A stretch of 34,276 nt of DNA from the NCBI GenBank assembly GCA_018825145.1, contig JAHJFD010000029.1, forward strand, positions 1 to 34,276, written 5' to 3'. Source of the DNA: Patescibacteria group bacterium (GTDB lineage: Bacteria; Patescibacteriota; Gracilibacteria; UM-FILTER-43-11). Each line of letters starts with the position of its first letter. The first letter of the stretch is position 1. Under the pieces are notes generated by a model. The model did no database searches and was not told where the DNA came from. It worked only from the letters and a program-made list of their open reading frames with translations. Positions 9,024 through 26,320 of this stretch are shown piece after piece. The position numbers and the translations under genes are program-made.

Positions 9024-9764
9024 TTAAGTGATAATATGAGTTTTATGTGAGCAATGAATATAGCCGATAAAAGCCAGGGCGGCCACTATTCCGTAGGCGA
9101 TTTTAAGGTAGCCGGAAGGTGATCCGTGCATAAAATCGATACCAAACATTCCCAGACTGTAAATCATAAGAGCCCTTGTTCCTACCACACCTGAAAGATG
9201 AATCCGTTTGCTGGCCTTCACACTGTAAATTAGCAAAAGCATGGTTAAAAGTGCCGCGTAAAGCTGTGTTGGATGAATTGGGGACACAAAGGGTATGTGC
9301 TTTACATCAAGGGCGATACCCCACGGCAAATTGGTTGGGAGGCCATATTCCTTTCCCGCAAAAAAATATCCGACATGCACAAATATTAGCATGGCCATTG
9401 AAGACAGAAACAGAGCATCGGACCAGGACCAGAAATCCTCCCTGTTTTTACGCGAGGCCAGAAAAACTGCAAGAAGGGCGCCTGCCAGCATGCCAAAAAA
9501 ACTGAATTTCAGGTCCCATACATAAATCAGTGAAATCCAGTAATTCTGAAACTCGGAAATGTTGCTGAGGACATAAGCCGCTCTGCCTCCGAAAAGCGCG
9601 GCCAGAAGAACATAGGGGAAATATTCCGTGACAAAGGCAGTATTCATTTTATGCCGATTGACGTACCGTAGAAGAAAAGTACCTGTAAACAGGAAACCCA
9701 GAGCTAGCAGAATATTTAGTGAGCGAACAGTGATGAGAGAATTTTGGAACAGAACTTCGAGCAT
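9024..9764 (-). CDS. Lgt-like polytopic membrane protein, catalytic residues changed
   Basis: 246 residues with about seven membrane helices, as in prolipoprotein diacylglyceryl transferase. Family marks remain: GGRAAYVL (59-66), GKEYGLPTNLPWGI (137-150) and HPTQLYAALL (164-173). In true Lgt the catalytic core is FHGGLxG and GRxGNFxNG. Here these read FFGMLAG (89-95) and HVGYFFAGK (130-138), so by this alignment E. coli His103 becomes Phe90, Arg143 becomes His130 and Asn146 becomes Tyr133. The C-terminal arginine-containing EFFR-like motif is GIDFMHG. It therefore descends from Lgt but probably does not transfer diacylglycerol by the known mechanism. It lies between the large secreted protein and the zinc-ribbon gene. 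Confidence 0.75.
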   Translation of the reverse strand: MLEVLFQNSLITVRSLNILLALGFLFTGTFLLRYVNRHKMNTAFVTEYFPYVLLAALFGGRAAYVLSNISEFQNYWISLIYVWDLKFSFFGMLAGALLAVFLASRKNREDFWSWSDALFLSSMAMLIFVHVGYFFAGKEYGLPTNLPWGIALDVKHIPFVSPIHPTQLYAALLTMLLLIYSVKASKRIHLSGVVGTRALMIYSLGMFGIDFMHGSPSGYLKIAYGIVAALAFIGYIHCSHKTHIIT

Positions 9765-9782: not shown

Positions 9783-12700
9783 TTATCGGATTTCCTGAGA
9801 GCTGGTGAGACCGCCGCTGGAACTGAAACCCGGCGGGACGGGGCGATTATCTCTTTCTATGAAGAAAGTGTCGAGGGATTTTGAATTGGCCGTGTCAATG
9901 GCCAAACCTGTGGTCAGACTAACAGTGGTGGGCAAAGATCCAAGGGAGCAATTGGGGTTTGGGGCAGTTGCCTCACAGGAACCGCCGCCGCTGAACAGGT
10001 AACCTGCAGGAGCAAAGACAACGCCCGTATCGTTAATGGTGGCAAAACGCCTGATGAAATCCAGGTCGTAAGCCTGACTGCAGTTGGCGACATCGTTGCC
10101 CCAGGCTATGCAGCTAACGTTTTGCGGAACCACCTTATTCGGACCGCCGCCAATGGTGTTGTACGAGGCAATGCTGCCCTGCCAGTAAAGCTGGTTTTTA
10201 AGATCGTTGGCATTTCCTCCGGCACCGTAGTAGAACTGCCCGGCAGTATTACGGCTGAGCAGGCTTCCCTCGGCGTAAAGCAGGCCGACGATATTGGTCG
10301 GGGCGGGATCAATATAAACGTTACCGCCGCTACCATTGGCATCCTGCATCACGATCATACCCAGAGAGTTGCCGGTGAAGGCTCCATAGCTGATATTGCT
10401 TCTGATATTAAGGTCGGCGCCGTCAAGTAAGATGATCGTGTACCGGTAATCGGGAATGGAAATAATGAGGCCGGTGCCAAGGTCAATCGTACCCGGGCCG
10501 GAATAAACAGCGACAACAGTTTTATTGTTATCATTCACTGCGATGCAGCCTCCGTGAGTTGTGGTAAGGCTGGTCAGGGACTGCGGAGCGGGGCAGGGGG
10601 AAATGGTTCTTGTAAGGGAGGCCACATTTTTACGGATTTCGCGCCGCAGATCGGCTGATGATGTGGTTGAAACAATATCAAGGTCGCGGCCGCCGACCGT
10701 TTCGTAGACCTGTCCTCCGCCAACCGTTCCGCTTGTGCCAAGGCCTATGGACTTCACTTCGATGCCGTCTATATAAGCGTTGGCGGGGTAAATGGCGAAC
10801 TGGGGGAAAGTGCTTGACGGGGCGTGGTAGGCCATGTACTGAGTAATACCGAATTCCACCTGGGCGCTGAGGGCCTGGCCAAGGAATTGTGAAGGGGTGA
10901 AGCCGAAAGTGTAACTGTTGGTGCTGCCGGAGGCCAGATCAGAGCCAAGAAAGTCGCTGCGGTCGATACTGACTGACGGGCAGGAAGAAGTCTGGCGACA
11001 TGGGTCGTCAGGACTGACGTAATAGGTGCCGTCGACCTGATAAATGCCGCTTGTATTGGTGTTTGAGTTGAAATTGTAGATCGGCGGGTGATAGTTCCGG
11101 CTCGCACTGTGGAACTGATTGATTCCCTGGTCGTTAAGGGAGCCACGGAGCAGACCGTAGCGGGTTTCGGCGCTGTCGGGATCGGTGCGGCCGGCGGTGT
11201 CAGATGTACCGTTCAGGTTAATGCTGTTGATTTCCAGAACTTCTTTGCCTATTCCGCCGCTGATATTGGTGTAGTTCAGAATGTGGTCGAAGCTGTATTC
11301 ACCAAGATCGTCACTGCTGTTGTTTATGATATTAAAAGCGGCTTCAACCGGTTGGCCCAGCACAATAAAATCCGCGTTCAGATTACCGCCTGTGACTTCG
11401 AGGGCGGGAATAAAGTTATAGGAATAGGGAAGGGGATTGGCGGGAAGGGCGACGCTTGAATTGTCTACCAGATTGGCCGAGCTGGTGTCTATGGCCGGCA
11501 AAACCGGGGAAAGCGCCGGCAGTGTGGCATCCACCGTGTTTATAGTGATGTCGTTCAGCTCAAGGATATTTCCGACCGAAGCCGTGGGGGCGAACCCGAC
11601 TGTGCCCAGCAGGTAGTCTCCGGCACTATGAGGCAGGCTGGCGGCAACTCCGGTAAACGGGTACGTGATCGAGTCGGTGTAAGAATATGTTTGGCTTTCG
11701 ATATCAATTGGGGCCGGGGTACCAAGATTGCGGGTGGGGTCGATCCGGTCGAAGCCAAAATCGCTGTTGTCGCTGAGGTCATACAGAATTTCCACATCGC
11801 GGACCCAGCTAGCCTGCACAGGTTCCGGAAGCACTCCCGGAATCAGGGCGGATTTGACGGCAATAATGGGATTGCCTCCGATGTCCCGCGGACTGAAAGT
11901 AATATCGATGATGTCATTTCCGTCGGCCACAGCTCCGGCGCCGTTTGGAATGAGAGATGAGGCGGACAGATCAAGATCGCCGGCTCTTACGTATAAGGTT
12001 ACCGGGTTAGGGGCATAAGTGCTTGGAGCAGGACTTAAAATATTCACTCCGTCTGCTGCGGCGGCGGCGGCGCCCTCGGGGCCAAAATAATAACCAAAGC
12101 CCGAACCATTGTAGATTACGCCTCCCATCATATATTTACAAAAACCATGTGGGGGTGCTCCGATCAGGCCGATTTCGGGAAAACTCAGATTTACAGCGCC
12201 GTCCCCGCCCTGACTGATGATCATGTCGCCGTTCTGGTATGGGCCGCCAACCACTGACGGACAGCCGGCAAAGTCGGCTCCGGTATCGGTATTTACTGTA
12301 ATGAAACTGTTAGCGGTATCGATGGATGAATCGTTTTCGTCGGCAAACTCGGGCCAGCTGATGGTTCCCGTCGCACTGCTGTTCGGAATCCAGGCGTTGT
12401 CGGTATTCAGGGCTTTCAGGACTGGGGGTGTTAAATCCGGAAACCATTTGGTGAAAGCGCCGGTAAATTCCGTGTCTCCGGCTTCGGGGCCGAATTTGAT
12501 CCACCCCAGATACTGGCTCCAGGCATAACCGCGCAGCGGCTGGCCGTTCGGGTTGGCAACTGAATCAAATACGCAAACACCGTCACCGGCGTCCCAGTTA
12601 CAATATGGGTTTGAATCCGCGGATTCGCAGGCAGGCTGGGTCGTTTTTAATGGGCAGAAGTCTATGTACGCGCCCCAGTTGTTCGCGTCCTGCGCGCTGA

Positions 12701-13175
12701 CTTCGGGTACACGGACGGATTTATCAACCTCACAATAACTGCCGGTCCAGTTGCAGTATGTTGCGGTACAGGCGGCAATGCCCAGGCCGTCGCAGGCCGA
12801 CAGGCTGACCCAGCCGAATTTTTCACCCCATATATAGCCGCCCAGGTTTCCGTTGTACATTGCTTTGGCGATGTACGCGTTCGGGAATACACCTGCTCCC
12901 AGCTGGCTCTGAAGCCCTTTTCCGTCCCAATACGTCCATCCGGTTTTATCCGCCCAGGAAAAGCCCTTAATAAAGCAGGTCTGCATTGTGTTATCGCAGT
13001 CTTCACCGAAATTAATATCGTCTATGGTGACGCCATAGGGGATTCCCGCATCTTTCATTGTTATTGTTGCGATCACCTCTCCGTAGATTTCACCGGTCAC
13101 GTCGGTCGCGGCGTTCGCGGAACCAATGGCCCCAAGCATGATCAGAAAAGCGATGATGACTGTTTTAAACTTCAT
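9783..13175 (-). CDS. large secreted surface protein with GYxW-GW motifs
   Basis: 1130 residues starting with a Sec signal peptide (TVIIAFLIMLGAIGSANA, likely cut after residue 22). Near the N-terminus three short motifs of the form G-[FY]-x-W-x(4)-GW occur: GFSWADKTGW (71-80), GYIWGEKFGW (113-122) and GYAWSQYLGWIKFGP (216-230). Two CNW-containing cysteine clusters lie between them (about 135-149 and 182-203). The rest is rich in Asn, Ser, Thr, Gly and Pro, as in beta-rich extracellular proteins. Residues 880-1040 are Gly/Asn-rich, with a VGLLYAEGSL segment recalling the C-terminal parts of pilus-associated or adhesin-like proteins. No C-terminal anchor or LPXTG is visible. It follows the cysteine-repeat membrane protein by 12 bases, which suggests joint export or assembly at the surface. 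Confidence 0.8.
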   Translation of the reverse strand: MKFKTVIIAFLIMLGAIGSANAATDVTGEIYGEVIATITMKDAGIPYGVTIDDINFGEDCDNTMQTCFIKGFSWADKTGWTYWDGKGLQSQLGAGVFPNAYIAKAMYNGNLGGYIWGEKFGWVSLSACDGLGIAACTATYCNWTGSYCEVDKSVRVPEVSAQDANNWGAYIDFCPLKTTQPACESADSNPYCNWDAGDGVCVFDSVANPNGQPLRGYAWSQYLGWIKFGPEAGDTEFTGAFTKWFPDLTPPVLKALNTDNAWIPNSSATGTISWPEFADENDSSIDTANSFITVNTDTGADFAGCPSVVGGPYQNGDMIISQGGDGAVNLSFPEIGLIGAPPHGFCKYMMGGVIYNGSGFGYYFGPEGAAAAAADGVNILSPAPSTYAPNPVTLYVRAGDLDLSASSLIPNGAGAVADGNDIIDITFSPRDIGGNPIIAVKSALIPGVLPEPVQASWVRDVEILYDLSDNSDFGFDRIDPTRNLGTPAPIDIESQTYSYTDSITYPFTGVAASLPHSAGDYLLGTVGFAPTASVGNILELNDITINTVDATLPALSPVLPAIDTSSANLVDNSSVALPANPLPYSYNFIPALEVTGGNLNADFIVLGQPVEAAFNIINNSSDDLGEYSFDHILNYTNISGGIGKEVLEINSINLNGTSDTAGRTDPDSAETRYGLLRGSLNDQGINQFHSASRNYHPPIYNFNSNTNTSGIYQVDGTYYVSPDDPCRQTSSCPSVSIDRSDFLGSDLASGSTNSYTFGFTPSQFLGQALSAQVEFGITQYMAYHAPSSTFPQFAIYPANAYIDGIEVKSIGLGTSGTVGGGQVYETVGGRDLDIVSTTSSADLRREIRKNVASLTRTISPCPAPQSLTSLTTTHGGCIAVNDNNKTVVAVYSGPGTIDLGTGLIISIPDYRYTIILLDGADLNIRSNISYGAFTGNSLGMIVMQDANGSGGNVYIDPAPTNIVGLLYAEGSLLSRNTAGQFYYGAGGNANDLKNQLYWQGSIASYNTIGGGPNKVVPQNVSCIAWGNDVANCSQAYDLDFIRRFATINDTGVVFAPAGYLFSGGGSCEATAPNPNCSLGSLPTTVSLTTGLAIDTANSKSLDTFFIERDNRPVPPGFSSSGGLTSSQEIR

Positions 13176-13187
13176 GAAAATGCTGCT

Positions 13188-14180
13188 TTAAGAGCTCTGA
13201 CAAAGCTGTTTCAATTCCTCATCCAGAATTTTGTCGCAGAGCGATTTGTTGTTGGAAGCAAGGGATTGCCTTAAATAATAGGTATTGAGCTTTTCGCCCT
13301 GTTCGCGGCGACACTCGGCAATTCCTGATTCATCACTGATCTTATCGCAATAACTCAGGTCTTTTTCGTCAAAGGCCAGTTGAGGATAAACGGCGTTCTT
13401 GCAGGTAATCGCTTTAGCATCTGAAAGACTGTCGCAGAGCTCCAAAATCTCCTGAAGGGTTTTAGGTGTTGCGGCATTTTTGGCGGCTATTTCGCTTTGG
13501 CGTTTGACTTCGATATTTTTGGTGACCGTCTGCCTGCACTGACTGGCCAGGCTGCCGTCCGAAATGTTATTGCAGCCTTCGGCGTCCAGTTTTTTCGCGC
13601 TGCTGTGCATGTAAAAATTGTCCTCGCATTGCCGCCTGAGTGAAGCGGATGCGATGACCGAGCAGTCATCGGCGGTTTTAGCGTAACGACTCAGAATCAT
13701 TTGCACCTGATCAAGGCACATCAGCTTCAGGGTTTCATCTTTGATCAAGTCGCAGATGGAAGGATCCTTCTTATCAACGGCGGTAGTCATGTAGATTTTG
13801 TCGTAACATTGCCGTTTGAGCACCTGGCTATTAAGCCTATCACACTGTGATGCATCGCCGCTTTTGAGTATGGAGGCATAATTCAGATTGTCTTCACATT
13901 GTTTTTTGAGTTCCCCGCTCCAGGTAATTTTGTCACAATCCGAAATATCACCAGAATTAAGGGCTTCCACCATAGCTTCCGAATCGTCTTTTATCTTTTC
14001 CTGAGGGCCGGGTTCCGGTGGTTTGGCGAATCCTTTTGGTTTGGCCGCGGGTTCCGTCACCTGAACAGTCGTCGGGATTCTTACCGCTTCTTCCGGTAAT
14101 TTTCCCCTTAAATAAACAAGCCCTCCAAGAGCGATGATTACAACGATTCCGGAGATGAGCCAGATTCTGAACCTGTTCAT
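13188..14180 (-). CDS. membrane-anchored protein with eight CX11-12C repeats
   Basis: 330 residues. An N-terminal membrane helix (WLISGIVVIIALGGLVYL, 7-24) is followed by a Pro-rich linker (about 36-60). Then come eight cysteine pairs: 82/95, 113/125, 143/155, 173/185, 203/215, 249/260, 278/290 and 315/327. The pairs recur with a period of about 30 residues over the first five. The unit reads roughly [ED]xxxCDxIxDxxLxxxCxDxxxxxxA and is alpha-helical, so each pair could staple a helical hairpin by a disulfide outside the membrane. All 16 cysteines of the protein are in these pairs. I do not recognise a named family; the layout recalls Sel1- or TPR-like arrays. It lies 12 bases before the large secreted protein. 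Confidence 0.85.
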   Translation of the reverse strand: MNRFRIWLISGIVVIIALGGLVYLRGKLPEEAVRIPTTVQVTEPAAKPKGFAKPPEPGPQEKIKDDSEAMVEALNSGDISDCDKITWSGELKKQCEDNLNYASILKSGDASQCDRLNSQVLKRQCYDKIYMTTAVDKKDPSICDLIKDETLKLMCLDQVQMILSRYAKTADDCSVIASASLRRQCEDNFYMHSSAKKLDAEGCNNISDGSLASQCRQTVTKNIEVKRQSEIAAKNAATPKTLQEILELCDSLSDAKAITCKNAVYPQLAFDEKDLSYCDKISDESGIAECRREQGEKLNTYYLRQSLASNNKSLCDKILDEELKQLCQSS

Positions 14181-14295: not shown

Positions 14296-15762
14296 TCAGA
14301 AATTCACGATGACAAGGGAGTAAATCCCGAAACAGAAAAAGAACAGAAAAAGCGAGCCGAGAAAATTGGACCGAAACAGGCGTAGTTTAAGCGTAAAAGT
14401 AAGGTGAGCTACCACCAGAAATATGCTGATATTGACAATGAGCGGCGAAGTAAGAGTTTTTACAACCAGTTCCTTGGGCAGTCCCACATTTCTTTCGATT
14501 GCGAAGCCGGCAAGAAAAAAGTAAGCCAGATAAAAAAACAAAAGCCATCCGACGAAGCTGTCAAGTTCCATAAACAGGGCTGAGAAATCCCTTTTGGCTT
14601 TAATTTTTGATGTTTCGCTGACGGCTGGGCGAGCTACCGCTTCTTTTTTCAGTGTTTTTGCCCGCACCCGTGCCGCTTTCCATGCGCGAAAAGCCTTGGT
14701 CATATCCTGTTTTCTGACACGGCGAAGGATGGCGTTCGGAGCGCTCACGAAGCCGAAAAATTTGTACATCATTGATTTGACGCCGGGGTGCTCTTTTCCT
14801 GTTTTCTCTTTGAGACTCCGCGTAAGCTGGGACAGCCAGCGTGACCGATGTCCTTTAATTTTTGCGGCAACCGCCTGATCAATTTCATCTGCCTTCTTGC
14901 GATTGAGGGTCTTTCGGACTTTAGCCAGAGTGGTCTGAACTTTTTCAAAACGGGTCGTTTTTTTCTGAAGATTATGCAGTTCCAGGAACTTAAAGGGGTT
15001 TGATATAAAACCGCTTTCCTCCAGTCTGGATACGGTTTTCTGATATTCATCCTCCGCGGTCTGATCCGCCTGTTCCTCTATCGAATCAGGATTCGAAATC
15101 AGTTCATACAGATTGTTACATACCTTTGTGATGTGCTTCAGATTGTTGCTGGCCCGTATCCTTTCGAGTTCATTCAATGTTTTTTCGATTTCTTTCAGAA
15201 AAGCTTCGGAGTACTGACCGCGATGCTCATTCAGAACCTTTTTTGTGTTGATTATGAAATGGTCTATCTCGGTGATGATCGCTTCGCTCATTTTTTCATC
15301 TTCTTCTTCCAGCTCCCCCCTGGTTCCGGCCATCGGTTTGTGGGACAAATCTATTCCTTCCTCTTCCATCTGCCTTTTCCATTCTTCAAACTGCGACTTA
15401 AGACTGGCGCTTGCCGGATCAGCCGCGTTTTGTGGGTACAGATCAAGCACGTCAAATCGGTATTCGGCCATCAGTCGCCGGTAGGCGGAATTGGCATCCT
15501 TTGAATCAATCGTGCCGTTGACTTCCTTGCCGTGGACATCTTTAGCTATAAAATAATATGTGACGATGCCTTCCTGTGTTTTTGCGGCAACGGCTTCTTT
15601 ACTTTCAACAGCAGCCGCTTCCCCGGCCGAAACTTCGCTGATGGCAACGATGGACATCCCCATCTTGTGAAGTTCTTCGCGGGCTGCGTCAATAGACCCG
15701 GCATCCAATACTCCTTCGAGCTTTTGATTATTCGTTCCGAGCGCAGTATACTTAAACTTCAT
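14296..15762 (-). CDS. membrane protein with two GspF/PilC-N-like domains and coiled coil
   Basis: 488 residues. Residues 1-43 (KFKYTALGTNNQKLEGVLDA, then AxxAREELHKMGMSIVAI) resemble the start of type II secretion/type IV pilus GspF/PilC proteins, where the pattern is F-x-Y-x-A ... G-x(3)-A-x(5)-A-x(3)-L-x(3)-G. A second copy lies at about 67-109 (YYFIAKDVHGKEVNGTIDSK). The middle (about 118-330) is charged and helical. Three membrane helices close the protein (about 403-420, 440-460, 467-487). The polytopic GspF core domains are absent, so this is not PilC itself. It heads the minus-strand envelope run, with a promoter at 15785-15814, and ends in TGA. It may be a platform or scaffold for the secreted proteins downstream; that is inferred only from position. 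Confidence 0.7.
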   Translation of the reverse strand: MKFKYTALGTNNQKLEGVLDAGSIDAAREELHKMGMSIVAISEVSAGEAAAVESKEAVAAKTQEGIVTYYFIAKDVHGKEVNGTIDSKDANSAYRRLMAEYRFDVLDLYPQNAADPASASLKSQFEEWKRQMEEEGIDLSHKPMAGTRGELEEEDEKMSEAIITEIDHFIINTKKVLNEHRGQYSEAFLKEIEKTLNELERIRASNNLKHITKVCNNLYELISNPDSIEEQADQTAEDEYQKTVSRLEESGFISNPFKFLELHNLQKKTTRFEKVQTTLAKVRKTLNRKKADEIDQAVAAKIKGHRSRWLSQLTRSLKEKTGKEHPGVKSMMYKFFGFVSAPNAILRRVRKQDMTKAFRAWKAARVRAKTLKKEAVARPAVSETSKIKAKRDFSALFMELDSFVGWLLFFYLAYFFLAGFAIERNVGLPKELVVKTLTSPLIVNISIFLVVAHLTFTLKLRLFRSNFLGSLFLFFFCFGIYSLVIVNF

Positions 15763-15851: not shown

Positions 15852-17855
15852 ATGCGTTTTGTATCGGTTAGCATCTTAAAAAAACCGGGTGAATTTGATC
15901 AGCCGCTCAGTTACAGAGTTCCTGCTTCAATGAATGCTGAATGCAGCGCGGGTCAGGGAGTTGTGGTGGAGCTGCGCGGAAAGAAGACGAGGGGTATTGT
16001 GGTCGCACTGGAATCCCGGTTTCCTGAGTCCGTAAAAGTAATGTGCGATGTACAGGAGGTGCTGCCGGATTTGCGGCTGGAGCCTGAAATCGTGGAGCTG
16101 GCCCGGAGGATTTCTGATTACTACCGGTGTTCACTTCTCAGGGCCCTGAAGCTTTTTGTTCCCAAAGCCCTTTGGCAGGGTACCGGAAAACGCATTTTGG
16201 CCCAGATTGAGAAGGCGGATTATATAAGGACGGATCCACGGAAGTTTCCGCTGGTTCCTTTTGAACATCAGCTTACAGGGGAACAGGCGCTGGCCTTAAG
16301 CGCCATTCAGTCGGAAGCTAAGCCTGTTTTGTTGCAGGGTGTAACCGGGTCCGGCAAAACCGAGGTTTACCTGCGCGTTATTTTAGAAGCGGTAAAAAAA
16401 GGGCGGCAGGCTATTTTGCTGGTCCCCGAAATCGCCATTACCCCCCAGATGATTACTTATTTTGAGCGGTATTTCGGACCCCATATAGCCCTTTTCCATT
16501 CCAGGCTTTCCGACGGTCAGCGGCTGCATGAGTGGTTCAAGGTAAAAAACGGTTACGCGCCGCTTATAATCGGTTCGCGCTCGGCCATCTTCGCGCCCGT
16601 AAAAGATTTGGGAGTACTGATTGTGGATGAGGAGCATGAGTGGACCTATAAACAGGAAAGTTCGCCCTATTACGAAACCCATCGGGTGGCGGAAATGATA
16701 AGGGAACGGACTGGGTGCCGTCTGATATTCGGCACGGCGACGCCGCGTCTGGAAACTTTGTATAAAGCCCGTCAGGGGGAGTACGCGCATGTGAGACTTT
16801 TTGACCGTATTAATTCCTTTTCCCTGCCCAAAATAAATGTGGTGGATTTGCGTGAAGAGTTCAGGCGCAAAAATTACAGTATTTTTTCTCAGGCGCTGTT
16901 TTCCGGAATTCAGGATCGTCTGAAAAAAAAGGAGCAAATCATCCTTTTTGTTAATCAGCGGGGCATGGCACGGGCGGTGATTTGCCGGGATTGCGGAGAA
17001 GCGCTTAGGTGCCCGGAATGCGAAGTCAGTCTGAAACTGCATGGAGGTTCTTACGGAACTCAGCAGTATCTGCTCTGCCATTATTGTTCTTATAGAACCG
17101 AGCCAAAACTAAAGTGTCCGAAGTGCGGTTCCACCAGCATCCGGCACGCAGGTCTTGGAACGGAGAAGGTAGAAGAGGAAATATTCAGGACTTTTCCTCA
17201 GGCGCGTGTGGTCCGGGCCGATAAAGATACCACTTCGGACAAATCCGGGTTTGAACCGATTTACGAAGCGTTCAAAGAAAGGCGGTACGATATTTTAGTG
17301 GGCACGCAAATGGTGGCCAAGGGCCTCGACTTTCCGCATGTGACGCTGATCGGCATCATGCTGGCGGACATCGGCCTGCATGTGCCGGATTTTCGCAGCC
17401 ACGAAAGGCTTTTTCAGCTGATCACGCAGGTTTCCGGAAGAGCCGGACGGGGGGAGACGGAAGGCGAAGTGGTGCTTCAGACCTACCAGCCTGAGCACCA
17501 CGCAATTCGTATGGCGGCTGATTACGCGTATGATGAGTTTGCCGACCGGGAACTTAAATTCAGGGAACGCCTGAAATATCCGCCTTTTTCACATCTGCTT
17601 AAGTTTATTGTGTCCGGGGCCGATCAAACGAAACTTGAAAAGCATGTGCGGCAGGAGAGTGAAATTTTAGAGGACATATTTAAAGTTAACCGGCTCCCGG
17701 TGACCATTACGGCGGCGCCGGCCATGATTCCCAAAATCGGCAAAAACTATTATTACCATGTACTTTTAAGAAGCGCTGATCCGCATCTGATCTTCAGACA
17801 CTGGAAAGTTCCCAAAGGATGGCGAGTAGATATTGATCCTGTACACACTACCTAG
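15852..17855 (+). CDS. priA: primosomal protein N' (replication restart helicase PriA)
   Basis: PriA, 667 residues, a superfamily 2 DNA helicase that recognises collapsed forks and reloads the replisome. Order: 3' DNA-binding domain (about 1-105), Walker A GVTGSGKTEVY (163-173), DEEH box (259-262), then a zinc domain with eight cysteines (378, 381, 387, 390, 409, 412, 422, 425) binding two zinc ions. GLGTEKVEEE, QMVAKGLDFPHVTLIGIMLA and QVSGRAGRG are the C-terminal helicase motifs. All catalytic parts are intact and the length is typical. The gene diverges from the envelope run and overlaps the 1404-residue gene by eight bases at their 3' ends, with the two TAG stops on either side of the palindrome CCTAGG. 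Confidence 0.98.
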   Translation: MRFVSVSILKKPGEFDQPLSYRVPASMNAECSAGQGVVVELRGKKTRGIVVALESRFPESVKVMCDVQEVLPDLRLEPEIVELARRISDYYRCSLLRALKLFVPKALWQGTGKRILAQIEKADYIRTDPRKFPLVPFEHQLTGEQALALSAIQSEAKPVLLQGVTGSGKTEVYLRVILEAVKKGRQAILLVPEIAITPQMITYFERYFGPHIALFHSRLSDGQRLHEWFKVKNGYAPLIIGSRSAIFAPVKDLGVLIVDEEHEWTYKQESSPYYETHRVAEMIRERTGCRLIFGTATPRLETLYKARQGEYAHVRLFDRINSFSLPKINVVDLREEFRRKNYSIFSQALFSGIQDRLKKKEQIILFVNQRGMARAVICRDCGEALRCPECEVSLKLHGGSYGTQQYLLCHYCSYRTEPKLKCPKCGSTSIRHAGLGTEKVEEEIFRTFPQARVVRADKDTTSDKSGFEPIYEAFKERRYDILVGTQMVAKGLDFPHVTLIGIMLADIGLHVPDFRSHERLFQLITQVSGRAGRGETEGEVVLQTYQPEHHAIRMAADYAYDEFADRELKFRERLKYPPFSHLLKFIVSGADQTKLEKHVRQESEILEDIFKVNRLPVTITAAPAMIPKIGKNYYYHVLLRSADPHLIFRHWKVPKGWRVDIDPVHTT

Positions 17856-20800
17856 GCACGGTGCCGGCAATAGAGGCCAGAATAGCCCTAAACTGGGCAT
17901 CACTCATTTGATCGAAGATGGTACCGATTATCAGGTCTATTCGGTCATAGATTTGATCAATATTTTCTACATCGGCAAGCCGTGGCGCCAGACCAGGGTA
18001 GCGTTGCATAAGGTAGTCCCTGGCCCCAGTGCCCATTTCGGCTTTTACTTCTTTACTCATGGCTTCACGTCCGGTGATCATGCCGAAAAACTTGGGATCA
18101 ATCGCCAACAGAAAGGCTTTTACGATGTTACGGTGCTGTCCGAGGCTGACTCCATTGTGACGACCTACGCCGGATTCACGTGGAATGTCCTGGTTCATGG
18201 CTTCATTGGCGCGGGTAGTTATATCCTTACTGGATTCGCGGTAAGCGCTTCCGTCGAGCATACCTTCTGACATAGTAATCCAGCCGGCGATGCGGGCGAA
18301 GTTTCCCTTTTTTGCGAACCGCGGATTTATGGAGTTTTCTTCCAGCCACTGAACGGCGCCCACGTAAGCGTTGCCCACGGCGGTGACTTTGGTTTCTTGT
18401 TGACCACTGCGGCCGGACAGAAATCTTTTGGCGGTGTCCGCGTCTCCCATACAGGCCATACTGCGGCACCAGTCATGATCCCAACTGCGCTCGCTCACTG
18501 ATTTTTTCACGCGCTGCACCACTTTTTCGTCATTTTGCACGGTGGTCCAGTAAAAGTTTTTGAATTCACTGCCGAATCCCGAAGCATCAATGCTTCCCCG
18601 CATGTAGTCGCTTGGGAAGTACTGCATGGCCATTCGCCTGAAGTCCTCCTGGCTCATGGGTGGCTGCAGAGAAGTGAACCAGTCGATAGCCGGCCAGGCA
18701 TTTAGGTGATCCCCTAAAGCCAGACCACGGTCGGGAGCCAGCAGACCTGTTGCCATGCCGGCAATCAGATGGAACATTATGTTCTCCGCGTAGGACTTTC
18801 CTTTTAAGATGCAGTATTCCATAATTGACTCGTACAGAATAGGATCAACCTGTTCGCCGGCCCTGTGCTGACTCAGAAGCTCATCGAGGCGGTCAGTCAG
18901 TTTGTCCTGCATTCGGCTGTGCAGGGTGTCATATTTGCTTTTGGAGCTTTTATAATTGCCTTCATTAGTCCGTTCCAGGGTATCAAATTCATCGTAATCG
19001 TAGATTTCACCCATAGCTGTGCGAAGTCTTTGGCGAAGTAGCACCGGATTGTGCAGCAGTAATTGGTCACCTGGCTTAAGTACAGCGGTTGACTGCAGTT
19101 TGTTGAGCGCTTTCCATATGTTCTCATTACGCCAGTTGATTCTGCCTTTGTCCGCCAGTATGCGCAGAATAGCCTTGAGCTGGTCCTGATTCGGAAGCAA
19201 GCTATTCGCGATTCCCCTGATTTCGTCCATAAGCTGCCATGCATCCATGTTTTCATAACGGCTCTTCCATTCATTGACTTCCTCAGATTCCGCTTTCTGC
19301 TGTCTGGCGCGAGCTTCGCGGCCCAGATCGGTGCCGCTGAACAGCGCCATGCCAAGTCGGGCGGCGTGGTCAGCCGTTTTTCGTTTATGCCTACGCTGAA
19401 GAAATTCGTAGACATCAGTACCCGCCTGCACAAAATCATGTATTGATAGGAAAGTGGTGTTGATCCAGAGTTTGCGTAGCAGGCTTATTTCGGTATTAGG
19501 CGCCTTTCGGGCGGCTTTGCCTACCTTATCTTCAACGTCCGTTAAATCCTTTGATACCTTGTTGATTCTGCTTGTGATGGCTACATCAAGGATTCCGCTT
19601 TCAGGGTCATTCTTCAGATCTTCATTCAGGCTATCAGTGCCATCATTGTAATCAATCATAGCGTTCACAAGTTCGCCGGCACCGGAAACATTGCCAATGT
19701 ATTCATATTTACCGAGTGTCTGCAATCTCTCCCGAAGGGAGTTGATTTTTACTTTGTTTCCTTCGTAGGCCGCTGTTTCTCTGCTGAGGGCTTGCGTGAT
19801 AGCGAGTTTACCCGTGTCTTCAGGTCTTCCGCCTTCCTCAACACCTTCTTCATAACCGCGCTTTTTTATGTCTTCAGCGGTTTCCTTGGCACCTGCTTCA
19901 TAACCACGCGTTTTTTCAGCGATATCTCCGATGGCCGCCGCCGCTCCCATGCCCGTTAACAGATTATTGAGCTTATCGGTGGAAGACTTGCCTTTGGACC
20001 ATGTGCGGCCCATTTCATTCTGCATGGCGTAAAGCTCGCTGAGGATGTCTTCGTCTTCCCATTGGTCTCCATGAGGCGGCTGTTTCTTTTTTTCTTTGGC
20101 CATGGCAATGAAGGCCTCCCGGATATGTTTCCATTTTTTAGGGTCTTTTTCGATCAGTGTCTGGTGCACCTGCTGTCTGACGCGGCTGCTTTTCTCGAAT
20201 TCAAGGTGAAGCAGTTCGTGGGTCAGCTGTTTTTTGAGTACTTCGAGGTTTCTTTCCACTTTGAAAACACTTTCGTCAATGATGATCTTCCACTGGCCGC
20301 CTTCTTCCTGGAAGACCATATGGCCTTTTTTGGTGAACTGACGGTAATCTTTTTCAAAATCGCTGTGGGAAACGAAATTTAGATGACCGGCAAGATTGGT
20401 TTCAAGGATCAGCCGGATATCGTCGGGATTCTGAGCTCGTTCAAGTTCTTTGATAGTCTTGTGGGCCAGTTTGGCATCGGCGTTTTCCACGCTCAGTGCT
20501 TCATCCAGATTGCCATCCAGGTTCTCCAGGAATTCCAGTTTTGGCCTGAAAGCTGCCAAATCCTGCTGAATGGCCATCACTTCCTCGATGTCCATTTCCG
20601 AGATGTTCTCAAGTCGCCGTGCAAATTCCTTCATTTGAGCATGAAGCGGACTTTGCGGGTCACTGAGCTGAGTGAGGGCATTGAGAGCCTTGTTGTAGAT
20701 CGCTTCATCTTTTGGCAGTTTTTCCGCTTTAAGCTGGGCTCTGTATTCCTGCGTGATCTTACGGATTTTTTCGGGTGTGAAGTTGGCCAGCAGCGCCTGG

Positions 20801-22062
20801 AACCTTTTAAAATCCGAGGTTGCTTCTGTTTCCAGCTGAGGTCTGTTTTCTTTTGCCTTTTTTACTTCGGCTTTGCTGGCGGCAAGACTGGTTCTCGCGC
20901 TTCTGAAATTGTCGGCAATCCGTCTGAGTTTTTTCGGATCATTGATGCGCTGCCCGACAATAATACTTCTGGCTTCCATTAATCCATTTTCAATCGATTC
21001 GATGGTTTTGTCGCTGAAGACACCGTCTTTTTTTACTTTCTCTAGCTGTTGTTCCAGCTTATTCATTTCTTCAGCCAGGTAGTCCTGCGCTCTTTCGGCA
21101 CGGATTGATTGTGCTTCTGTCAGTAGCTGTTTGAGTCTGTCCAGGGTTTCGGGCTGTACGCTTTCCAGAACGCTTCTGGAAGCGGCTGCAGCCTCTTCTA
21201 TTGTTCTTTGTCGATGAGTCCATTCAGCACGGGCGCTTTCGATCTGTTCGCGGAATTTATTGATTGTACCGTCGATCTCTTTTAGACGGCGCCTGTACCG
21301 CTCTCTTTCGGCTACGGAGGCATTTTTTATTTGTGAATTTATCGCGGCTTTCTCTTCTTCCAGTTCCTGAATGCCCTTTTCCACATTGGCTTTGTGCTCA
21401 AGCCATTTCTGGTCCGCCTCTTCAAAAACATGCTCCGATGTTCTGCCAAGCGCAGACTGCACGTTGTCGTTGGTAAACATTTGTCCGAAAGCGATATTAA
21501 TCGCCCCCTCAAACCGGTGGTCGACAAAGGGCATCATGCCGGAGTTCAGGAAGAGATGTAGGTCGACTTCGTCGAGTTTACCTTTTTCCAGGGCATCCAG
21601 CAGTCGCTGGTCACTTTCGATCTGGTCTACTGCATAATTCAGCTCATCAATACTTGTCACGGGCGCCTGACGGGTCGAGAGGGCATTGATACAATTCAGT
21701 CTTTTGGCTTCCAAAGCTTCCCGTTTCTTGATGTCCTTTTCACTCTCAAGAGCTGTATCGATATCATCGATGTTGTTCTGAAGGCCATTAAGAAGGAAGG
21801 TGTTGAGGGGCGCTGAAACGACTTCAAGGGTTTTTAGCTGTTCCTGAATTTTTTCTATTTCTTCCTCAAGTTTCCAGCGCTCTTCAAGAACTTGTTCGCT
21901 TTCCAATCTTATCTGCAGGGCCTCCAGGTCTCTTCGAAGAGCGGCGCGGGAACTTTCCACATCTTCATCAAGCTTAAAGCATACAAAATTTGAGCCCAAA
22001 AGTGGATTATTAGAATAAATCCCTCTGAACTGGTGGCCGATGTTTCTTTTTAAGAAACCCAT
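17848..22062 (-). CDS. giant coiled-coil protein with HELLH zinc-peptidase motif
   Basis: 1404 residues without a signal peptide or membrane helix, so probably cytoplasmic. Residues about 30-480 are almost all charged heptad-like helix (long Glu/Lys/Arg/Leu runs), typical of coiled coil. HELLHLEFE begins at His615. HExxH is the zinc site of metallopeptidases, and SELYAMQNEMG, some 60 residues on, could offer the third ligand (Glu676), as in gluzincins. The part before it (VFQEEGGQWKIIIDESVFKV) looks like the short beta segment that often precedes a zincin helix. Residues about 700-1404 are helical with no motif I recognise. It has its own strong promoter at 22235-22262 and a leader of about 165 bases. 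The peptidase activity is inferred from one motif. Confidence 0.8.
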   Translation of the reverse strand: MGFLKRNIGHQFRGIYSNNPLLGSNFVCFKLDEDVESSRAALRRDLEALQIRLESEQVLEERWKLEEEIEKIQEQLKTLEVVSAPLNTFLLNGLQNNIDDIDTALESEKDIKKREALEAKRLNCINALSTRQAPVTSIDELNYAVDQIESDQRLLDALEKGKLDEVDLHLFLNSGMMPFVDHRFEGAINIAFGQMFTNDNVQSALGRTSEHVFEEADQKWLEHKANVEKGIQELEEEKAAINSQIKNASVAERERYRRRLKEIDGTINKFREQIESARAEWTHRQRTIEEAAAASRSVLESVQPETLDRLKQLLTEAQSIRAERAQDYLAEEMNKLEQQLEKVKKDGVFSDKTIESIENGLMEARSIIVGQRINDPKKLRRIADNFRSARTSLAASKAEVKKAKENRPQLETEATSDFKRFQALLANFTPEKIRKITQEYRAQLKAEKLPKDEAIYNKALNALTQLSDPQSPLHAQMKEFARRLENISEMDIEEVMAIQQDLAAFRPKLEFLENLDGNLDEALSVENADAKLAHKTIKELERAQNPDDIRLILETNLAGHLNFVSHSDFEKDYRQFTKKGHMVFQEEGGQWKIIIDESVFKVERNLEVLKKQLTHELLHLEFEKSSRVRQQVHQTLIEKDPKKWKHIREAFIAMAKEKKKQPPHGDQWEDEDILSELYAMQNEMGRTWSKGKSSTDKLNNLLTGMGAAAAIGDIAEKTRGYEAGAKETAEDIKKRGYEEGVEEGGRPEDTGKLAITQALSRETAAYEGNKVKINSLRERLQTLGKYEYIGNVSGAGELVNAMIDYNDGTDSLNEDLKNDPESGILDVAITSRINKVSKDLTDVEDKVGKAARKAPNTEISLLRKLWINTTFLSIHDFVQAGTDVYEFLQRRHKRKTADHAARLGMALFSGTDLGREARARQQKAESEEVNEWKSRYENMDAWQLMDEIRGIANSLLPNQDQLKAILRILADKGRINWRNENIWKALNKLQSTAVLKPGDQLLLHNPVLLRQRLRTAMGEIYDYDEFDTLERTNEGNYKSSKSKYDTLHSRMQDKLTDRLDELLSQHRAGEQVDPILYESIMEYCILKGKSYAENIMFHLIAGMATGLLAPDRGLALGDHLNAWPAIDWFTSLQPPMSQEDFRRMAMQYFPSDYMRGSIDASGFGSEFKNFYWTTVQNDEKVVQRVKKSVSERSWDHDWCRSMACMGDADTAKRFLSGRSGQQETKVTAVGNAYVGAVQWLEENSINPRFAKKGNFARIAGWITMSEGMLDGSAYRESSKDITTRANEAMNQDIPRESGVGRHNGVSLGQHRNIVKAFLLAIDPKFFGMITGREAMSKEVKAEMGTGARDYLMQRYPGLAPRLADVENIDQIYDRIDLIIGTIFDQMSDAQFRAILASIAGTVPR

Positions 22063-22315: not shown

Positions 22316-22687
22316 TCAGTGACGCGATTCATCAATTAGGGCATTTTGAAGTGCCAGCAGACTGAGCAGGGCGCATTTACTACGGCGCACGCTGATTTCT
22401 ATTCCGAGCATCTTGTAGATTTCTTCTTTGGTCAGTTTCAGGATTTCTTTTTTGGTCAATCCAGTGGCCAGGTCGCCGAGCATGTCGGCGGAGGCCATGC
22501 TTATGGCACAGCCGTTACCTGAAAAAGAGTAGGCAGTCACCTTATCGCCCTGCATCTGCAGATCCACTTCGACCACGTCGCCGCAGGAATGGTTGGCTTC
22601 TTTGTGGCGGATGCTGGCATCGAGTTTTTTGTCCTTATAAAAGGGCTTTTTATAGCGGTCGAGGATGTTCTGGGCGTAGATATCCAT
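22316..22687 (-). CDS. sufU: SufU/IscU-type Fe-S assembly scaffold or sulfur-transfer protein
   Basis: 123 residues. The three conserved cysteines and the aspartate are present: NHSCGD (Cys35, Asp37), GNGCAIS (Cys60) and RRSKCALL (Cys105). The lysine before the last cysteine, where IscU has histidine, points to SufU. The spacing Cys60-Cys105 is 45 residues, close to IscU; B. subtilis SufU has some 19 more, so the SufU-specific insertion is missing. In Gram-positives SufU is a zinc protein that accepts sulfur from SufS and passes it to SufBCD. The start codon overlaps the sufS stop by one base, so the two are coupled. It closes the suf operon and ends in TGA. Confidence 0.92.
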   Translation of the reverse strand: MDIYAQNILDRYKKPFYKDKKLDASIRHKEANHSCGDVVEVDLQMQGDKVTAYSFSGNGCAISMASADMLGDLATGLTKKEILKLTKEEIYKMLGIEISVRRSKCALLSLLALQNALIDESRH

Positions 22688-23883
22688 TAGTGAAAATACT
22701 TGTAAACCTCCTCCAAAGCATGCACTGCTTGTTCGATGTCATCTTTGGTGTTGTAGAAGGCAAGGCTGATGCGGGCGGTGGCGGGAAGACCCCAGGTGTC
22801 CATCAGAATTTGGCCGCAATGGTGCCCGGCGCGAATGCAGATGTTTTTTTGGGACAGACCCTCGGCAATATCGTGAGGGTGTATGCCTTCCATGGCAAAA
22901 GAGATAACGGAACTCCGGTTATCGGTCGTTTTTGGGCCGATAAGCTTGAGGTAGGGGAGTGCGCTTAACTTGTTTAGGGTATATTCAGTCAGTTCCTGTT
23001 CTATACTTCGGATTTTATCAAAACCGATTTTACCGATGTAGTCGATAGCGGCTTTAAATGTGACGACACCCGAGATGTTGGGAGTGCCTGCCTCGAATTT
23101 TTGAGGAATGTCGTTTGGGGTGAAGCGATCCTCAAAGACTTCCTGAATCATTTCGCCGCCGCCCAGGAATGGAGGCATTTTTTTAAGCAGTTCTTCTTTT
23201 CCGTAAAGCACGCCAACGCCGGTGGGTCCGTACATTTTATGGGCGGAAAAGACCAGAAAGTCGGCATCCAGTTCCTGTACATTGATAGGGGAGTGGACCG
23301 CCAGTTGGCAGGCGTCGATCAGTATCTTGGCGCCCTTTGCGTGGGCGGCGGCAATGATCGGTTTTAGGTCAGGGATTGAGCCCAGAATATTCGACATGCC
23401 CGTGAGCGACACGAACTTGGTTTTACTGGTGATTTGTGAGCTGTCAAAAACAAACTGCCCGTTTTCATCAATATCCAAATATCGGACGTTCACGCCCTTT
23501 CTTTCTTTAAGCTGAAGCCAGGGGACTATGTTGCTGTGATGTTCCATTTTGCTCAGCAGGACTTCATCACTTTCTTGTAGGCAAGCGTCTCCATAACTTC
23601 GGGCCACCAGATTGATGCCTTCGGTGGCATTACGGGTAAAAACGATTTCATGTTTTTTTTCGGTGCCAATAAAGTCAGCGACTGTTTGCCTCGTCTCTTC
23701 GTAAGCAATAGTGGCTTCTTCCGCCAAAAAGTGAGCACTGCGGTGAATATTGCTGTTCAGCCGTTCGTAGTAATCTTTTTCCGCATCCAAAACTACCAGT
23801 GGCTTTTGGCTGGTTGCCGCGTTATCGAGGTAAATCAGTTGGGGCCGATGCTGAAAGATAGGGAAATCCTTTTTGAAGTCCAT
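22687..23883 (-). CDS. sufS: cysteine desulfurase SufS
   Basis: 398 residues, PLP-dependent group II cysteine desulfurase that takes sulfur from L-cysteine as a persulfide and feeds SufU/SufBCD. YLDNAATSQKP (18-28) is the N-terminal family mark. Lys216 in FSAHKMYGPTGVGVLYG binds PLP, and the nucleophile Cys356 lies in RAGHHCGQ. HHSNIVPW and AGTPNI are also present. The usual DGAQ at the PLP pocket is DACQ (190-193), a small change. It lies nine bases after sufD and overlaps sufU by one base. Confidence 0.97.
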   Translation of the reverse strand: MDFKKDFPIFQHRPQLIYLDNAATSQKPLVVLDAEKDYYERLNSNIHRSAHFLAEEATIAYEETRQTVADFIGTEKKHEIVFTRNATEGINLVARSYGDACLQESDEVLLSKMEHHSNIVPWLQLKERKGVNVRYLDIDENGQFVFDSSQITSKTKFVSLTGMSNILGSIPDLKPIIAAAHAKGAKILIDACQLAVHSPINVQELDADFLVFSAHKMYGPTGVGVLYGKEELLKKMPPFLGGGEMIQEVFEDRFTPNDIPQKFEAGTPNISGVVTFKAAIDYIGKIGFDKIRSIEQELTEYTLNKLSALPYLKLIGPKTTDNRSSVISFAMEGIHPHDIAEGLSQKNICIRAGHHCGQILMDTWGLPATARISLAFYNTKDDIEQAVHALEEVYKYFH

Positions 23884-23892
23884 GCCGGCTGA

Positions 23893-24798
23893 TTATATCA
23901 GTTTCTTTATGCTTTCATAAGCGGTTTTGTGTGCTTCGATTTTCTTCAGTTCTTTTCCCAGGAAGCCAGTGATCAGTAGCTTTTTTGCCATCTCTTTTTC
24001 TATTCCGCGGGCGCCAAAATAATAAAGGTCTTCGTCGCTTAGGTTTCGCACGGCGGCGCTGTGGCCGGCTTTGACATCATTGGTATCTATTTTTAGGCCA
24101 GGCATGGCCATGACTGTGGTATCGGGGCTGAGGTTTAATGTTTCCTGTTTCAGATACCCTGTAGATCCACTGCCGGTTTTCCTTATGTTGACCAGGCCGT
24201 CGAAACTCAGTATCGCCTTGCCTTGGGCGATACCCTTCATACCGATTTCGCCGGAACCCATTTTTTCGGCATAATCATGTTCACAGTTAAAACTTAAATC
24301 CTGATCGGCGGACGATTTGGCGATGATATCGGTGTTGATTTCAGCGCCTTTTCCGTAGGCGGTTTGAGTAAGTCGGCTATCAAGTTTTTTACTGCCAAAA
24401 TGATAGGTGTAAACATGGCATTTGGCGTCACTGGCTACGTCCGAGCTTCGCTTTTCTGTCATTTTGGTTTCCTGTGAACTGCAGTTCAGGACGACGTATT
24501 TAAGATTTGAGTTAGCATGGCACTTGATTTGCTGCCCGAAGCGAATAGTGGGGGACTTAACTTCCGCACACCAGTCTTCGATTATGGTGGCGGAGGAACC
24601 TTTACCAAGTTCAATGATAAGATTCAGATTAAGGTCATTTGTGGTAGGCTTGAACTTAATGTAAATGGCTTTTTCAAGCTGTTTTCCGGCGGGAATAGTG
24701 AGCTTGTAGCATTCCTGTTTTTCCTCATAGCACTTGGCCAGGACAAAGTCCCTTTTGTTGGGATGCTCGATGATGAAAGGTAGTGAAAAATCAGTCAT
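23893..24798 (-). CDS. sufD: Fe-S cluster assembly protein SufD
   Basis: 301 residues, shorter than the roughly 420 of E. coli SufD. The C-terminal beta-helix half is well kept: GKGAEINTDIIAKSSADQDL, IGMKGIAQGKAILSFDGLV and PGLKIDTNDVKAGHSAAVRN, with LSDEDLYYFGARGIEKEMA. The final helical segment is normal. The N-terminal helical part of classic SufD is reduced. SufD pairs with SufB in the SufBC2D scaffold, where the conserved His of AGHSA sits near the cluster-building interface. The start ATG overlaps the sufB stop (TAATG), so translation is probably coupled. Confidence 0.94.
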   Translation of the reverse strand: MTDFSLPFIIEHPNKRDFVLAKCYEEKQECYKLTIPAGKQLEKAIYIKFKPTTNDLNLNLIIELGKGSSATIIEDWCAEVKSPTIRFGQQIKCHANSNLKYVVLNCSSQETKMTEKRSSDVASDAKCHVYTYHFGSKKLDSRLTQTAYGKGAEINTDIIAKSSADQDLSFNCEHDYAEKMGSGEIGMKGIAQGKAILSFDGLVNIRKTGSGSTGYLKQETLNLSPDTTVMAMPGLKIDTNDVKAGHSAAVRNLSDEDLYYFGARGIEKEMAKKLLITGFLGKELKKIEAHKTAYESIKKLI

Positions 24799-26261
24799 TA
24801 TCCAATTGAGTTTTCCATTTCGAGTTCAATCAGGCGGTTCATTTCTACGGCGTATTCCAGAGGTAGCTCACGGACGATGGGACTTATAAAGCCGTTCACA
24901 ATCATGGCCTCGGCCTGAGCTTTTTCAATGCCTCTGGAGGTCAGATAAAAAATATCTTCTTCATTTAGCCGGCCCACGCGTGCTTCGTGGCTTACCGTGG
25001 CGGAGTTGTTATCGACCTTAATGTTTGGGAAGGTGTCAGAGACCGAGATCGGATCGAGGATGAGCGCGTCACATTCTATCTGACTGATGGCATTTTTGGC
25101 TGTTTTGGCAATGCGAATGTCACTGCGGTAAATCGAGTGTCCGCCCCCCTTGCTGATAGACTTCATGGTGATTTTGGAACCGGTGTTTTCGCCCAGATGC
25201 AGAACCCTGGCACCGGTGTCCTGAATCTGCCCGGCATTGGCAAAAGCGATACCCAGATGATCGGCGCGGGCGTTTCGTCCTTTTAGAATACTGCAGGGGT
25301 AGAGCATGGTTACGCCGCTGCCCATATTACCGCCCACCCATTCCATGGTTCCACCTTCTTCGATGATGGCGCGCTTGGTATTTAGGTTGTAGGTGTCTTT
25401 ACTCCAATTTTCGACCGACGAATAACGGAATTTAGCTCCTTTACTTACGAATACTTCCACGCAACCCGCGTGCAAAGCATTACTGCCGTACTTGGGCGCG
25501 CTGCAACCTTCGATGTAATGAGCTTCCGCGCCTTCTTCGACAATAATCAGCGTATGTTCGAACTGACCCATATTCATGGCGTTCATGCGGAAGTATGCCT
25601 GAAGCGGTTTTTTAACTTTTACGCCACTTGGCACGTACAAAAAGGTTCCACCTGACCAAACCGCCCCGTGAAGTGCGGAAAATTTGTGATCAGTGGCCGG
25701 AACACATTTCATAAAGTACTTCTGTACCAGATCATGGTGCTTTTGCAGGGCTAAATCCATATCCAGGAACAGCACGCCTTGCTCTTTCAATTCATTTTCA
25801 AGAGAATGATAAATCACCTCTGATTCGTATTGGGCACCTACGCCTGCCAGCACTTTTTTTTCCGCTTCCGGAATGCCCAGGCGGTCGAAGGTGTTTTTGA
25901 TGTAGGCGGGAACTTTGTCCCAGCTTTCGTAACCACCCTTTTTATCAGCCGCCTTGGCAAAAAAGCAGATTTCATCAAAATTCAGCGCCTCCAAGTTTGG
26001 CCCCCAGTTTGGCAGGGGAATGCGGGTAAAGTTTTCGTAAGCCTTCATTCGTTGATGCAACATCCACTCGGGTTCCTCTTTATCTTTCGAAATATGGGCC
26101 ACTAACTGCGGAGAAATACCCTTTTTGAACTTCTCCATGTAATCCGATGGGTCGGAATGATCTAAGGTATCACGATTCAGTCTGGCAAAAATGCCCTTTT
26201 CGCTTTTTGTTCCCGCCTCTGATTTTACAGTGGGGTCTATCATATCTGTTTTTAGTAACAT
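24798..26261 (-). CDS. sufB: Fe-S cluster assembly scaffold SufB
   Basis: 487 residues, the usual SufB length. VYHSLENELKEQGVLFLDMD-like sequence, YVPSGVKVKKPLQAYFRMNA, EGAEAHYIEGCSAP (with the Cys of the sulfur entry path), MEWVGGNMGSGVTMLYPC and ATVSHEARVGRLNEEDIFYL are diagnostic. SufB forms the scaffold with SufD and SufC and receives sulfur and iron for cluster building in the cytoplasm. The ATG at 26261 (MLLKTD) and one at 26243 (MIDPTV) are both possible; neither has a Shine-Dalgarno sequence. A repeat-containing hairpin lies in the short gap from sufC. Confidence 0.97.
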   Translation of the reverse strand: MLLKTDMIDPTVKSEAGTKSEKGIFARLNRDTLDHSDPSDYMEKFKKGISPQLVAHISKDKEEPEWMLHQRMKAYENFTRIPLPNWGPNLEALNFDEICFFAKAADKKGGYESWDKVPAYIKNTFDRLGIPEAEKKVLAGVGAQYESEVIYHSLENELKEQGVLFLDMDLALQKHHDLVQKYFMKCVPATDHKFSALHGAVWSGGTFLYVPSGVKVKKPLQAYFRMNAMNMGQFEHTLIIVEEGAEAHYIEGCSAPKYGSNALHAGCVEVFVSKGAKFRYSSVENWSKDTYNLNTKRAIIEEGGTMEWVGGNMGSGVTMLYPCSILKGRNARADHLGIAFANAGQIQDTGARVLHLGENTGSKITMKSISKGGGHSIYRSDIRIAKTAKNAISQIECDALILDPISVSDTFPNIKVDNNSATVSHEARVGRLNEEDIFYLTSRGIEKAQAEAMIVNGFISPIVRELPLEYAVEMNRLIELEMENSIG

Positions 26262-26264
26262 TGA

Positions 26265-26315: not shown

Positions 26316-26320
26316 AAGAA

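What the first reader, a model, noticed from the sequence alone, without database searches (positions are those of the whole stretch)
13188..14180. Eight cysteine-pair helical repeats outside the membrane
Sixteen cysteines form eight CX10-12C pairs with a period near 30 residues, behind an N-terminal membrane anchor. No other cysteine is present. This looks like a solenoid stapled by one disulfide per repeat, a fold I cannot assign. It would need an oxidising machinery outside the membrane.
Basis: partly seen in the sequence, partly recalled or inferred. Interest (0 to 1): 0.7.

Follow-up and report, generated by a model that had tools for sequence, protein, structure and literature searches.

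The report
Disulfide-stapled helical repeat surface protein
A small, host-dependent type of bacterium carries a membrane-anchored protein built of eight helical repeats, each apparently pinned by its own pair of cysteines, and across its class the gene often sits right next to one for a giant secreted surface protein, which suggests that the two work together.

Summary
In detail: 330 aa on the minus strand, 16 cysteines in eight CX10-12C pairs, no other cysteine, one N-terminal membrane helix. Random placement of 16 cysteines never gave more than six such pairs in 200,000 trials. The window is from a Peregrinibacteria/Gracilibacteria genome (relatives named). Orthologues occur in 15 of 18 genomes of the family, with all 16 cysteines invariant in 15 aligned sequences. 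A family profile matches 86 of 288 genomes of the class. AlphaFold2 gives a regular helical array (mean pLDDT 81.7) with the cysteines at the same places in nearly every repeat. No Pfam, NCBIfam or PDB family matches. DsbA-like enzymes are encoded; DsbB and VKOR were not found in this genome. Best reading: a disulfide-stapled extracytoplasmic solenoid acting as dedicated anchor or assembly factor for its neighbour exoprotein. The stapling is well supported but not measured; the partnership is inferred from gene linkage.

The parts
13188..14180 (-). Gene of the cysteine-paired helical repeat protein (330 aa)
14109..14165 (-). N-terminal membrane helix (residues 6-24)
   Evidence: hydropathy; helix 4-26
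13896..13937 (-). Cys pair 1 (C82/C95)
   Evidence: invariant
13806..13844 (-). Cys pair 2 (C113/C125)
   Evidence: invariant
13716..13754 (-). Cys pair 3 (C143/C155)
   Evidence: invariant
13626..13664 (-). Cys pair 4 (C173/C185)
   Evidence: invariant
13536..13574 (-). Cys pair 5 (C203/C215)
   Evidence: invariant
13401..13436 (-). Cys pair 6 (C249/C260), shortened to CX4C in four relatives
   Evidence: invariant
13311..13349 (-). Cys pair 7 (C278/C290)
   Evidence: invariant
13200..13238 (-). Cys pair 8 (C315/C327)
   Evidence: invariant
9783..13175 (-). Partner exoprotein (1130 aa, signal-peptide-like N terminus, 20 Cys), starts 12 bases after the repeat gene ends
9786..10568 (-). Conserved C-terminal region of the exoprotein used for profile A4
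14296..15762 (-). Upstream neighbour, 488 aa, starts with a GspF-like N-terminal domain; next to the repeat gene within the family, not shown to be so outside it
9024..9764 (-). Downstream neighbour, prolipoprotein diacylglyceryl transferase-like (Lgt)
   Evidence: gene order

Best explanation
The protein is an extracytoplasmic helical solenoid held to the membrane by one N-terminal helix. Each of its eight repeats is a short helix (about 6 residues), a tight turn and a long helix (about 18 residues), and one disulfide joins the short helix to the first turns of the long one. DsbA-like enzymes oxidise it after export. The rigid rod then serves as the dedicated anchor or assembly factor of the large exoprotein encoded directly downstream, holding or guiding it at the cell surface. 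Shown: the cysteine pattern, its conservation, the predicted helical repeats, the gene linkage. Inferred: the disulfides themselves, physical contact with the exoprotein, and its role. My split: disulfide-stapled extracytoplasmic solenoid about 0.85; dedicated partner of the exoprotein, given that, about 0.6.
For: Cysteine pattern far beyond chance. All 16 Cys invariant in 15 orthologues down to 27% identity. Of 40 sequences examined by script, 36 have six or more pairs; 29 of these 36 have no unpaired Cys beyond residue 45, and four more have pair 6 shortened to CX4C with both Cys kept (one of them, L085, also has a lone Cys). In model m856d31a553de the second Cys is residue 7 of its long helix in 8 of 8 repeats and the first Cys is residue 4 of the short helix in 7 of 8 (my reading of the element list). 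Extracytoplasmic side: 8 of 40 sequences match a lipobox pattern, 7 of them credible (L109's lies inside a membrane helix), the other 32 have a membrane-like helix. DsbA-like proteins in the same genome. Linkage: 12 of 12 family loci whose downstream gene is on the fetched DNA (14 loci tabulated, 2 at contig ends) have the exoprotein next, same strand, gap -25 to 84 bases; 11 of 26 other tabulated loci have a downstream protein matched by the family exoprotein profile at E 2.4e-7 or better; of 67 solenoid hits given to the script, 28 have the exoprotein C-terminal domain downstream on the same strand within 6 kb. Genomes: both 77, solenoid only 9, exoprotein domain only 79, neither 123 of 288.
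Against: No structure, disulfide or interaction was measured. The structure tool returned no coordinates, so Cys-Cys distance is untested; pTM is only 0.44, so the overall shape is unsure. DsbB and VKOR are absent from this genome and from most of the 29 genomes searched (DsbB in 3, VKOR in 9), so the route of reoxidation is open. The exoprotein C-terminal domain occurs without a detected solenoid in 79 of 288 genomes, so it does not always need this partner. Class counts are of related genomes and the Fisher test treats them as independent. 14 of the 28 linked loci supplied rows of the profile that found them; the other 14 did not.
Confidence: 0.52

Rival explanations
1. A stapled extracytoplasmic solenoid of unrelated function (for example binding peptides or cell-wall material), merely co-transcribed with the exoprotein.
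For: Outside the family many loci lack an adjacent exoprotein (15 of 26 had no downstream profile match, some because contigs end). Short homologues with 3-6 pairs stand beside other genes.
Against: Same order and strand kept across distant families with different genetic codes.
Confidence: 0.3
2. A metal-binding or metal-storing protein (for example copper held by exported Cys-rich helices).
For: 16 Cys in an all-helical exported protein.
Against: Pairs are 10-12 residues apart across a helix-turn-helix; only one His in residues 60-330; no Pfam family at all for the window protein at E up to 10.
Confidence: 0.07
3. A saposin-like lipid-binding protein.
For: Weak profile match to saposin A (E 0.12).
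Against: Saposin domains are about 80 residues long with six Cys (recalled); here the unit is about 30 residues with two Cys; the E-value is not significant.
Confidence: 0.02
4. A diverged member of the Sel1/TPR family (like Helicobacter Hcp proteins).
For: TPR-like proteins lead the fold comparison (best Foldseek E 0.038, VIA Z 7.0 with rmsd 10.2 over 175 residues to BamD).
Against: No Sel1 or TPR Pfam match; unit 30 not 34-36 residues, with a 6-residue short helix; scores are in the range the tool calls common for helical repeats.
Confidence: 0.12

Closest known systems
Helicobacter cysteine-rich proteins HcpB/HcpC (Sel1-like repeats)
   Same: Exported helical repeat proteins with a disulfide for each repeat (passages of PMC2581425 and PMC3851747)
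   Different: 36-residue repeats of two helices; in Hcp the bridge ties the end of one repeat to the start of the next as SMART defines them; no membrane helix or exoprotein partner recalled; no Sel1 match here
CagY repeat region of Helicobacter pylori, Pfam CagY_M (PF07337)
   Same: Tandem helical repeats with regularly placed Cys, outside the cell, where Cys matter for folding and assembly (abstract and passages of PMC2581425)
   Different: CagY motif A is 38-39 residues; no PF07337 match in the window protein, and the genome's only hit is below cut-off elsewhere; CagY repeats expand and contract, here the number eight is mostly kept
TPR solenoids such as BamD and LapB
   Same: Helical arrays, some tethered at the membrane as assembly factors (recalled)
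   Different: Weak fold match only; no sequence match; no per-repeat Cys pair (recalled)

Membership tests
Sel1-like repeat / Hcp family | Sel1 sequence profile | tested here: not met
   No Sel1 family among Pfam matches at E up to 1 for 15 members or up to 10 for six members
Sel1-like repeat / Hcp family | 36-residue helix-turn-helix unit | tested here: not met
   Unit 29-31 residues in 5 of 7 steps, helices about 6 and 18 residues
Sel1-like repeat / Hcp family | Sel1/TPR fold | tested here: inconclusive
   TPR-like rows lead but with weak scores
Sel1-like repeat / Hcp family | One disulfide per repeat | not testable with these tools
   Pattern fits; no coordinates or chemistry available
CagY_M (PF07337) | Profile above curated cut-off | tested here: not met
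Known zinc or copper families | Profile match | tested here: not met
   No family at all in Pfam or NCBIfam for the window protein
Saposin | Six-Cys domain of about 80 residues (recalled) | tested here: not met
   Two Cys per about 30 residues; best match E 0.12
DsbA-dependent exported protein | DsbA-like enzyme in the genome | tested here: met
   Three Thioredoxin_4 proteins, two also DSBA
DsbA-dependent exported protein | DsbB or VKOR partner in the genome | tested here: not met
   Not found in G000; genome 93% complete

The most novel reading that the evidence does not exclude
A hitherto undescribed exoprotein assembly module of Gracilibacteria: a new disulfide-stapled solenoid fold, mostly of exactly eight repeats, that acts as the dedicated anchor or export partner of a giant surface protein, possibly used by these host-dependent bacteria to hold on to other cells, and working with a GspF-like inner-membrane protein in the Peregrinibacteria.
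Probability: 0.3. Interest if true: 0.78.

Novelty: new variant of a known kind. Interest (0 to 1): 0.55.

Why it matters
The large surface proteins of these uncultivated bacteria are suspected to mediate contact with hosts (PMC8080830, passages), yet how they are held and assembled is not described in the passages I read. A conserved partner gene gives a concrete, testable handle. The repeat is also a compact helical unit apparently pinned by a disulfide, and its even, conserved cysteines point to an active disulfide-forming pathway whose reoxidation partner has not been identified in this genome.

Tried and rejected
Zinc or other known family: no Pfam, NCBIfam or PDB sequence match for the window protein; its family profile gave only saposin at E 0.12 and 0.18 in the PDB, and single members gave scattered sub-threshold Pfam rows; two PHROGs families each matched one of 17 members weakly and were set aside. 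Mobile or viral origin: no relative in IMG/VR by two scans, nor in plasmid or phage records. Viral fold library: nothing better than E 0.08. VKOR or DsbB as the electron acceptor: not found in this genome. Hcp did not appear in the fold listings, which excludes nothing. Joint absence of solenoid and exoprotein in three family members (G004, G014, G017) looked like strong support, but I rejected it: in G004 the upstream GspF-like gene lies at a contig end, and the other two also lack that gene, so assembly gaps explain it. I recall similar Cys-pair repeats in DPANN archaea; no call tested this. Paper searches for a description of the repeat: 'Gracilibacteria + cysteine-rich + disulfide' gave 0 papers, 'CagY + DC-EC + repeat' gave 0, and 'alpha-helical repeat + disulfide + solenoid + one disulfide per repeat' (at least three terms) gave three, unrelated by title; these cover open-licence PMC papers only.

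Full report
What is there. The ORF at 13188-14180 on the minus strand encodes 330 residues. It has one hydrophobic helix at residues 6-24 and nothing comparable later, a low-confidence linker, and from residue 59 a run of helices. Its 16 cysteines fall into eight pairs with inner spacing 10-12 and no cysteine is left over; start-to-start steps are 31, 30, 30, 30, 46, 29 and 37. Random placement of 16 cysteines gave six such pairs in 21 of 200,000 trials and never more.

Where it comes from. The assembly is 1.16 Mb in 67 contigs, 93% complete. The five relatives found in the named genome collection are labelled Patescibacteria, Candidatus Peregrinibacteria or Candidatus Gracilibacteria. Many genomes of the same class carry in-frame TGA codons in the matched genes, and their ORFs lengthen greatly under code 25, in line with the repurposed TGA of Gracilibacteria (PMC6851277, passages).

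Conservation. In the family, 15 of 18 genomes including this one have an orthologue. In 15 aligned orthologues, down to 27% identity, all 16 cysteines are invariant; besides them only four residues are (W7, I85, I146, L268). A profile of these matches 86 of 288 genomes of the class at E 1e-6. A wider alignment of 17, with members at 18-25% identity, still has 14 invariant columns, all cysteine; in the distant members the remaining pair is not aligned in that column but pairs lie elsewhere. In 40 sequences examined by script (the window and 39 loci; one further locus, L099, gave none by my rule), 36 have six or more pairs; 29 of these 36 have no unpaired cysteine beyond residue 45. The seven others are four with pair 6 shortened to CX4C (one of which has a further lone cysteine) and L097, L098 and L123. 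Most have exactly eight pairs, some six, seven or nine. In the wider phylum 29 of 379 genomes match, 13 of them outside the class; the four of these 13 that I looked at have three to six pairs.

Structure. Folded alone the protein gave mean pLDDT 70.5; with five relatives from the search for related loci 81.7, pTM 0.44. The repeat is a helix of about 6 residues, a turn, and a helix of about 18. Reading the element list against the cysteine positions, the second cysteine is residue 7 of its helix in 8 of 8 repeats and the first is residue 4 of the short helix in 7 of 8 (in repeat 6 it is the last residue of an 8-residue helix). So the repeats put their two cysteines in the same places on a helix-turn-helix, as one disulfide per repeat would need. 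The tool gives no coordinates, so the distance itself was not read. Foldseek found no PDB match below E 0.001 (best 0.038, a TPR domain), and VIA-align's best was Z 7.0 to BamD with rmsd 10.2 over 175 residues, which the tool calls common for helical repeats. I conclude a TPR-like solenoid at most, not a shown member of a known family.

Which side of the membrane. Of 40 sequences, 8 match a lipobox pattern, 7 credibly, and the rest have a membrane-like helix. Lipoproteins place the following domain outside, so the repeats are extracytoplasmic. Three Thioredoxin_4 proteins occur in the genome, two also matching DSBA, with CPFC, CPAC and CRAC sequences read. Next to one lies a 408-residue membrane protein with a CGHC motif and a GFNPC membrane segment; it has no Pfam match, and my comparison with DsbD is from recall. 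VKOR was found in 9 of 29 genomes (8 over cut-off) and DsbB in 3 of 29, neither in this genome.

The neighbour. Twelve bases after the repeat gene a 1130-residue protein begins with a signal-peptide-like N terminus. In the family the order is GspF-like protein, repeat protein, exoprotein, Lgt-like protein and further genes (in G010, L088, a 586-aa gene lies between the first two). The downstream gene is the exoprotein in 12 of 12 family loci where it can be seen; two of the 14 tabulated end at the contig edge. A profile of the family exoproteins also matches the downstream protein in 11 of 26 other tabulated loci, E 2.4e-7 or better. A profile of the C-terminal region from 14 exoproteins matches 156 of 288 class genomes. 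Both genes occur in 77, the solenoid alone in 9, the domain alone in 79, neither in 123; Fisher odds ratio 13, p 1.7e-16, treating related genomes as independent. Of 67 solenoid hits given to the script, 30 have a domain hit within 6 kb and 28 of these lie downstream on the same strand; 14 of the 28 are rows of the profile, 14 are not. The exoprotein itself matches no family above cut-off (relatives; C-terminal profile in the PDB). The GspF-like gene is next to the repeat gene only inside the family as far as seen; in other genomes it lies on other contigs or, in G031, several kilobases away.

How it probably works. After export the repeats are oxidised by DsbA-like enzymes into a stiff rod at the membrane. 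Close linkage with one large exoprotein, conserved over long distances, suggests that the rod holds, guides or helps to assemble that protein. A paper on the related Vampirococcus describes a fibrous surface and giant proteins thought to serve contact with the host (PMC8080830, passages). The link to that is my inference.

Compared with what is known. Disulfide-bridged helical repeats are known from the Hcp proteins and suspected in CagY of Helicobacter pylori (PMC2581425 abstract and passages, PMC3851747 passages). The principle is therefore not new. The 30-residue unit with CX11C, the mostly fixed count, the membrane tether and the exoprotein partner are not shared with them as far as I tested, and the sequence tests of membership were not met. 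I call it a new variant of a known kind.

Noticed in passing
window 9783-13175 (-): Exoprotein has GW motifs (IWGEKFGWV, AWSQYLGWI) and a conserved C-terminal domain ending in PPGF that occurs, often in several copies per genome, in 156 of 288 class genomes.
   Followed up: partly
window 14296-15762 (-): 488-aa membrane protein with a GspF-like N-terminal domain, apparently twice by eye, without the GspF core; conserved in the family.
   Followed up: partly
window 9024-9764 (-): Lgt-like protein well below NCBIfam cut-offs: diverged, or the genome's own Lgt.
   Followed up: no
window 17848-22062 (-): 1404-aa ORF without a family above cut-off; long ORFs stand in the same place in several family members.
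   Followed up: no
L125 1808-3034 (-), genome contig C43: 408-aa membrane protein with a CGHC motif beside a DsbA-like gene, conserved in G002 (L126), no Pfam match; possible missing redox partner.
   Followed up: partly
L098 1682-10233 (-): Three secreted proteins of 900-972 aa in a row after the repeat gene, the first not detected by the exoprotein profile.
   Followed up: no
L123 6156-7061 (+), genome G011: Second, lipoprotein-type Cys-repeat gene with 22 Cys in a family member.
   Followed up: no
window 22687-27076 (-): SUF iron-sulfur cluster genes: aminotransferase, two SufBD-type proteins, ABC ATPase.
   Followed up: no
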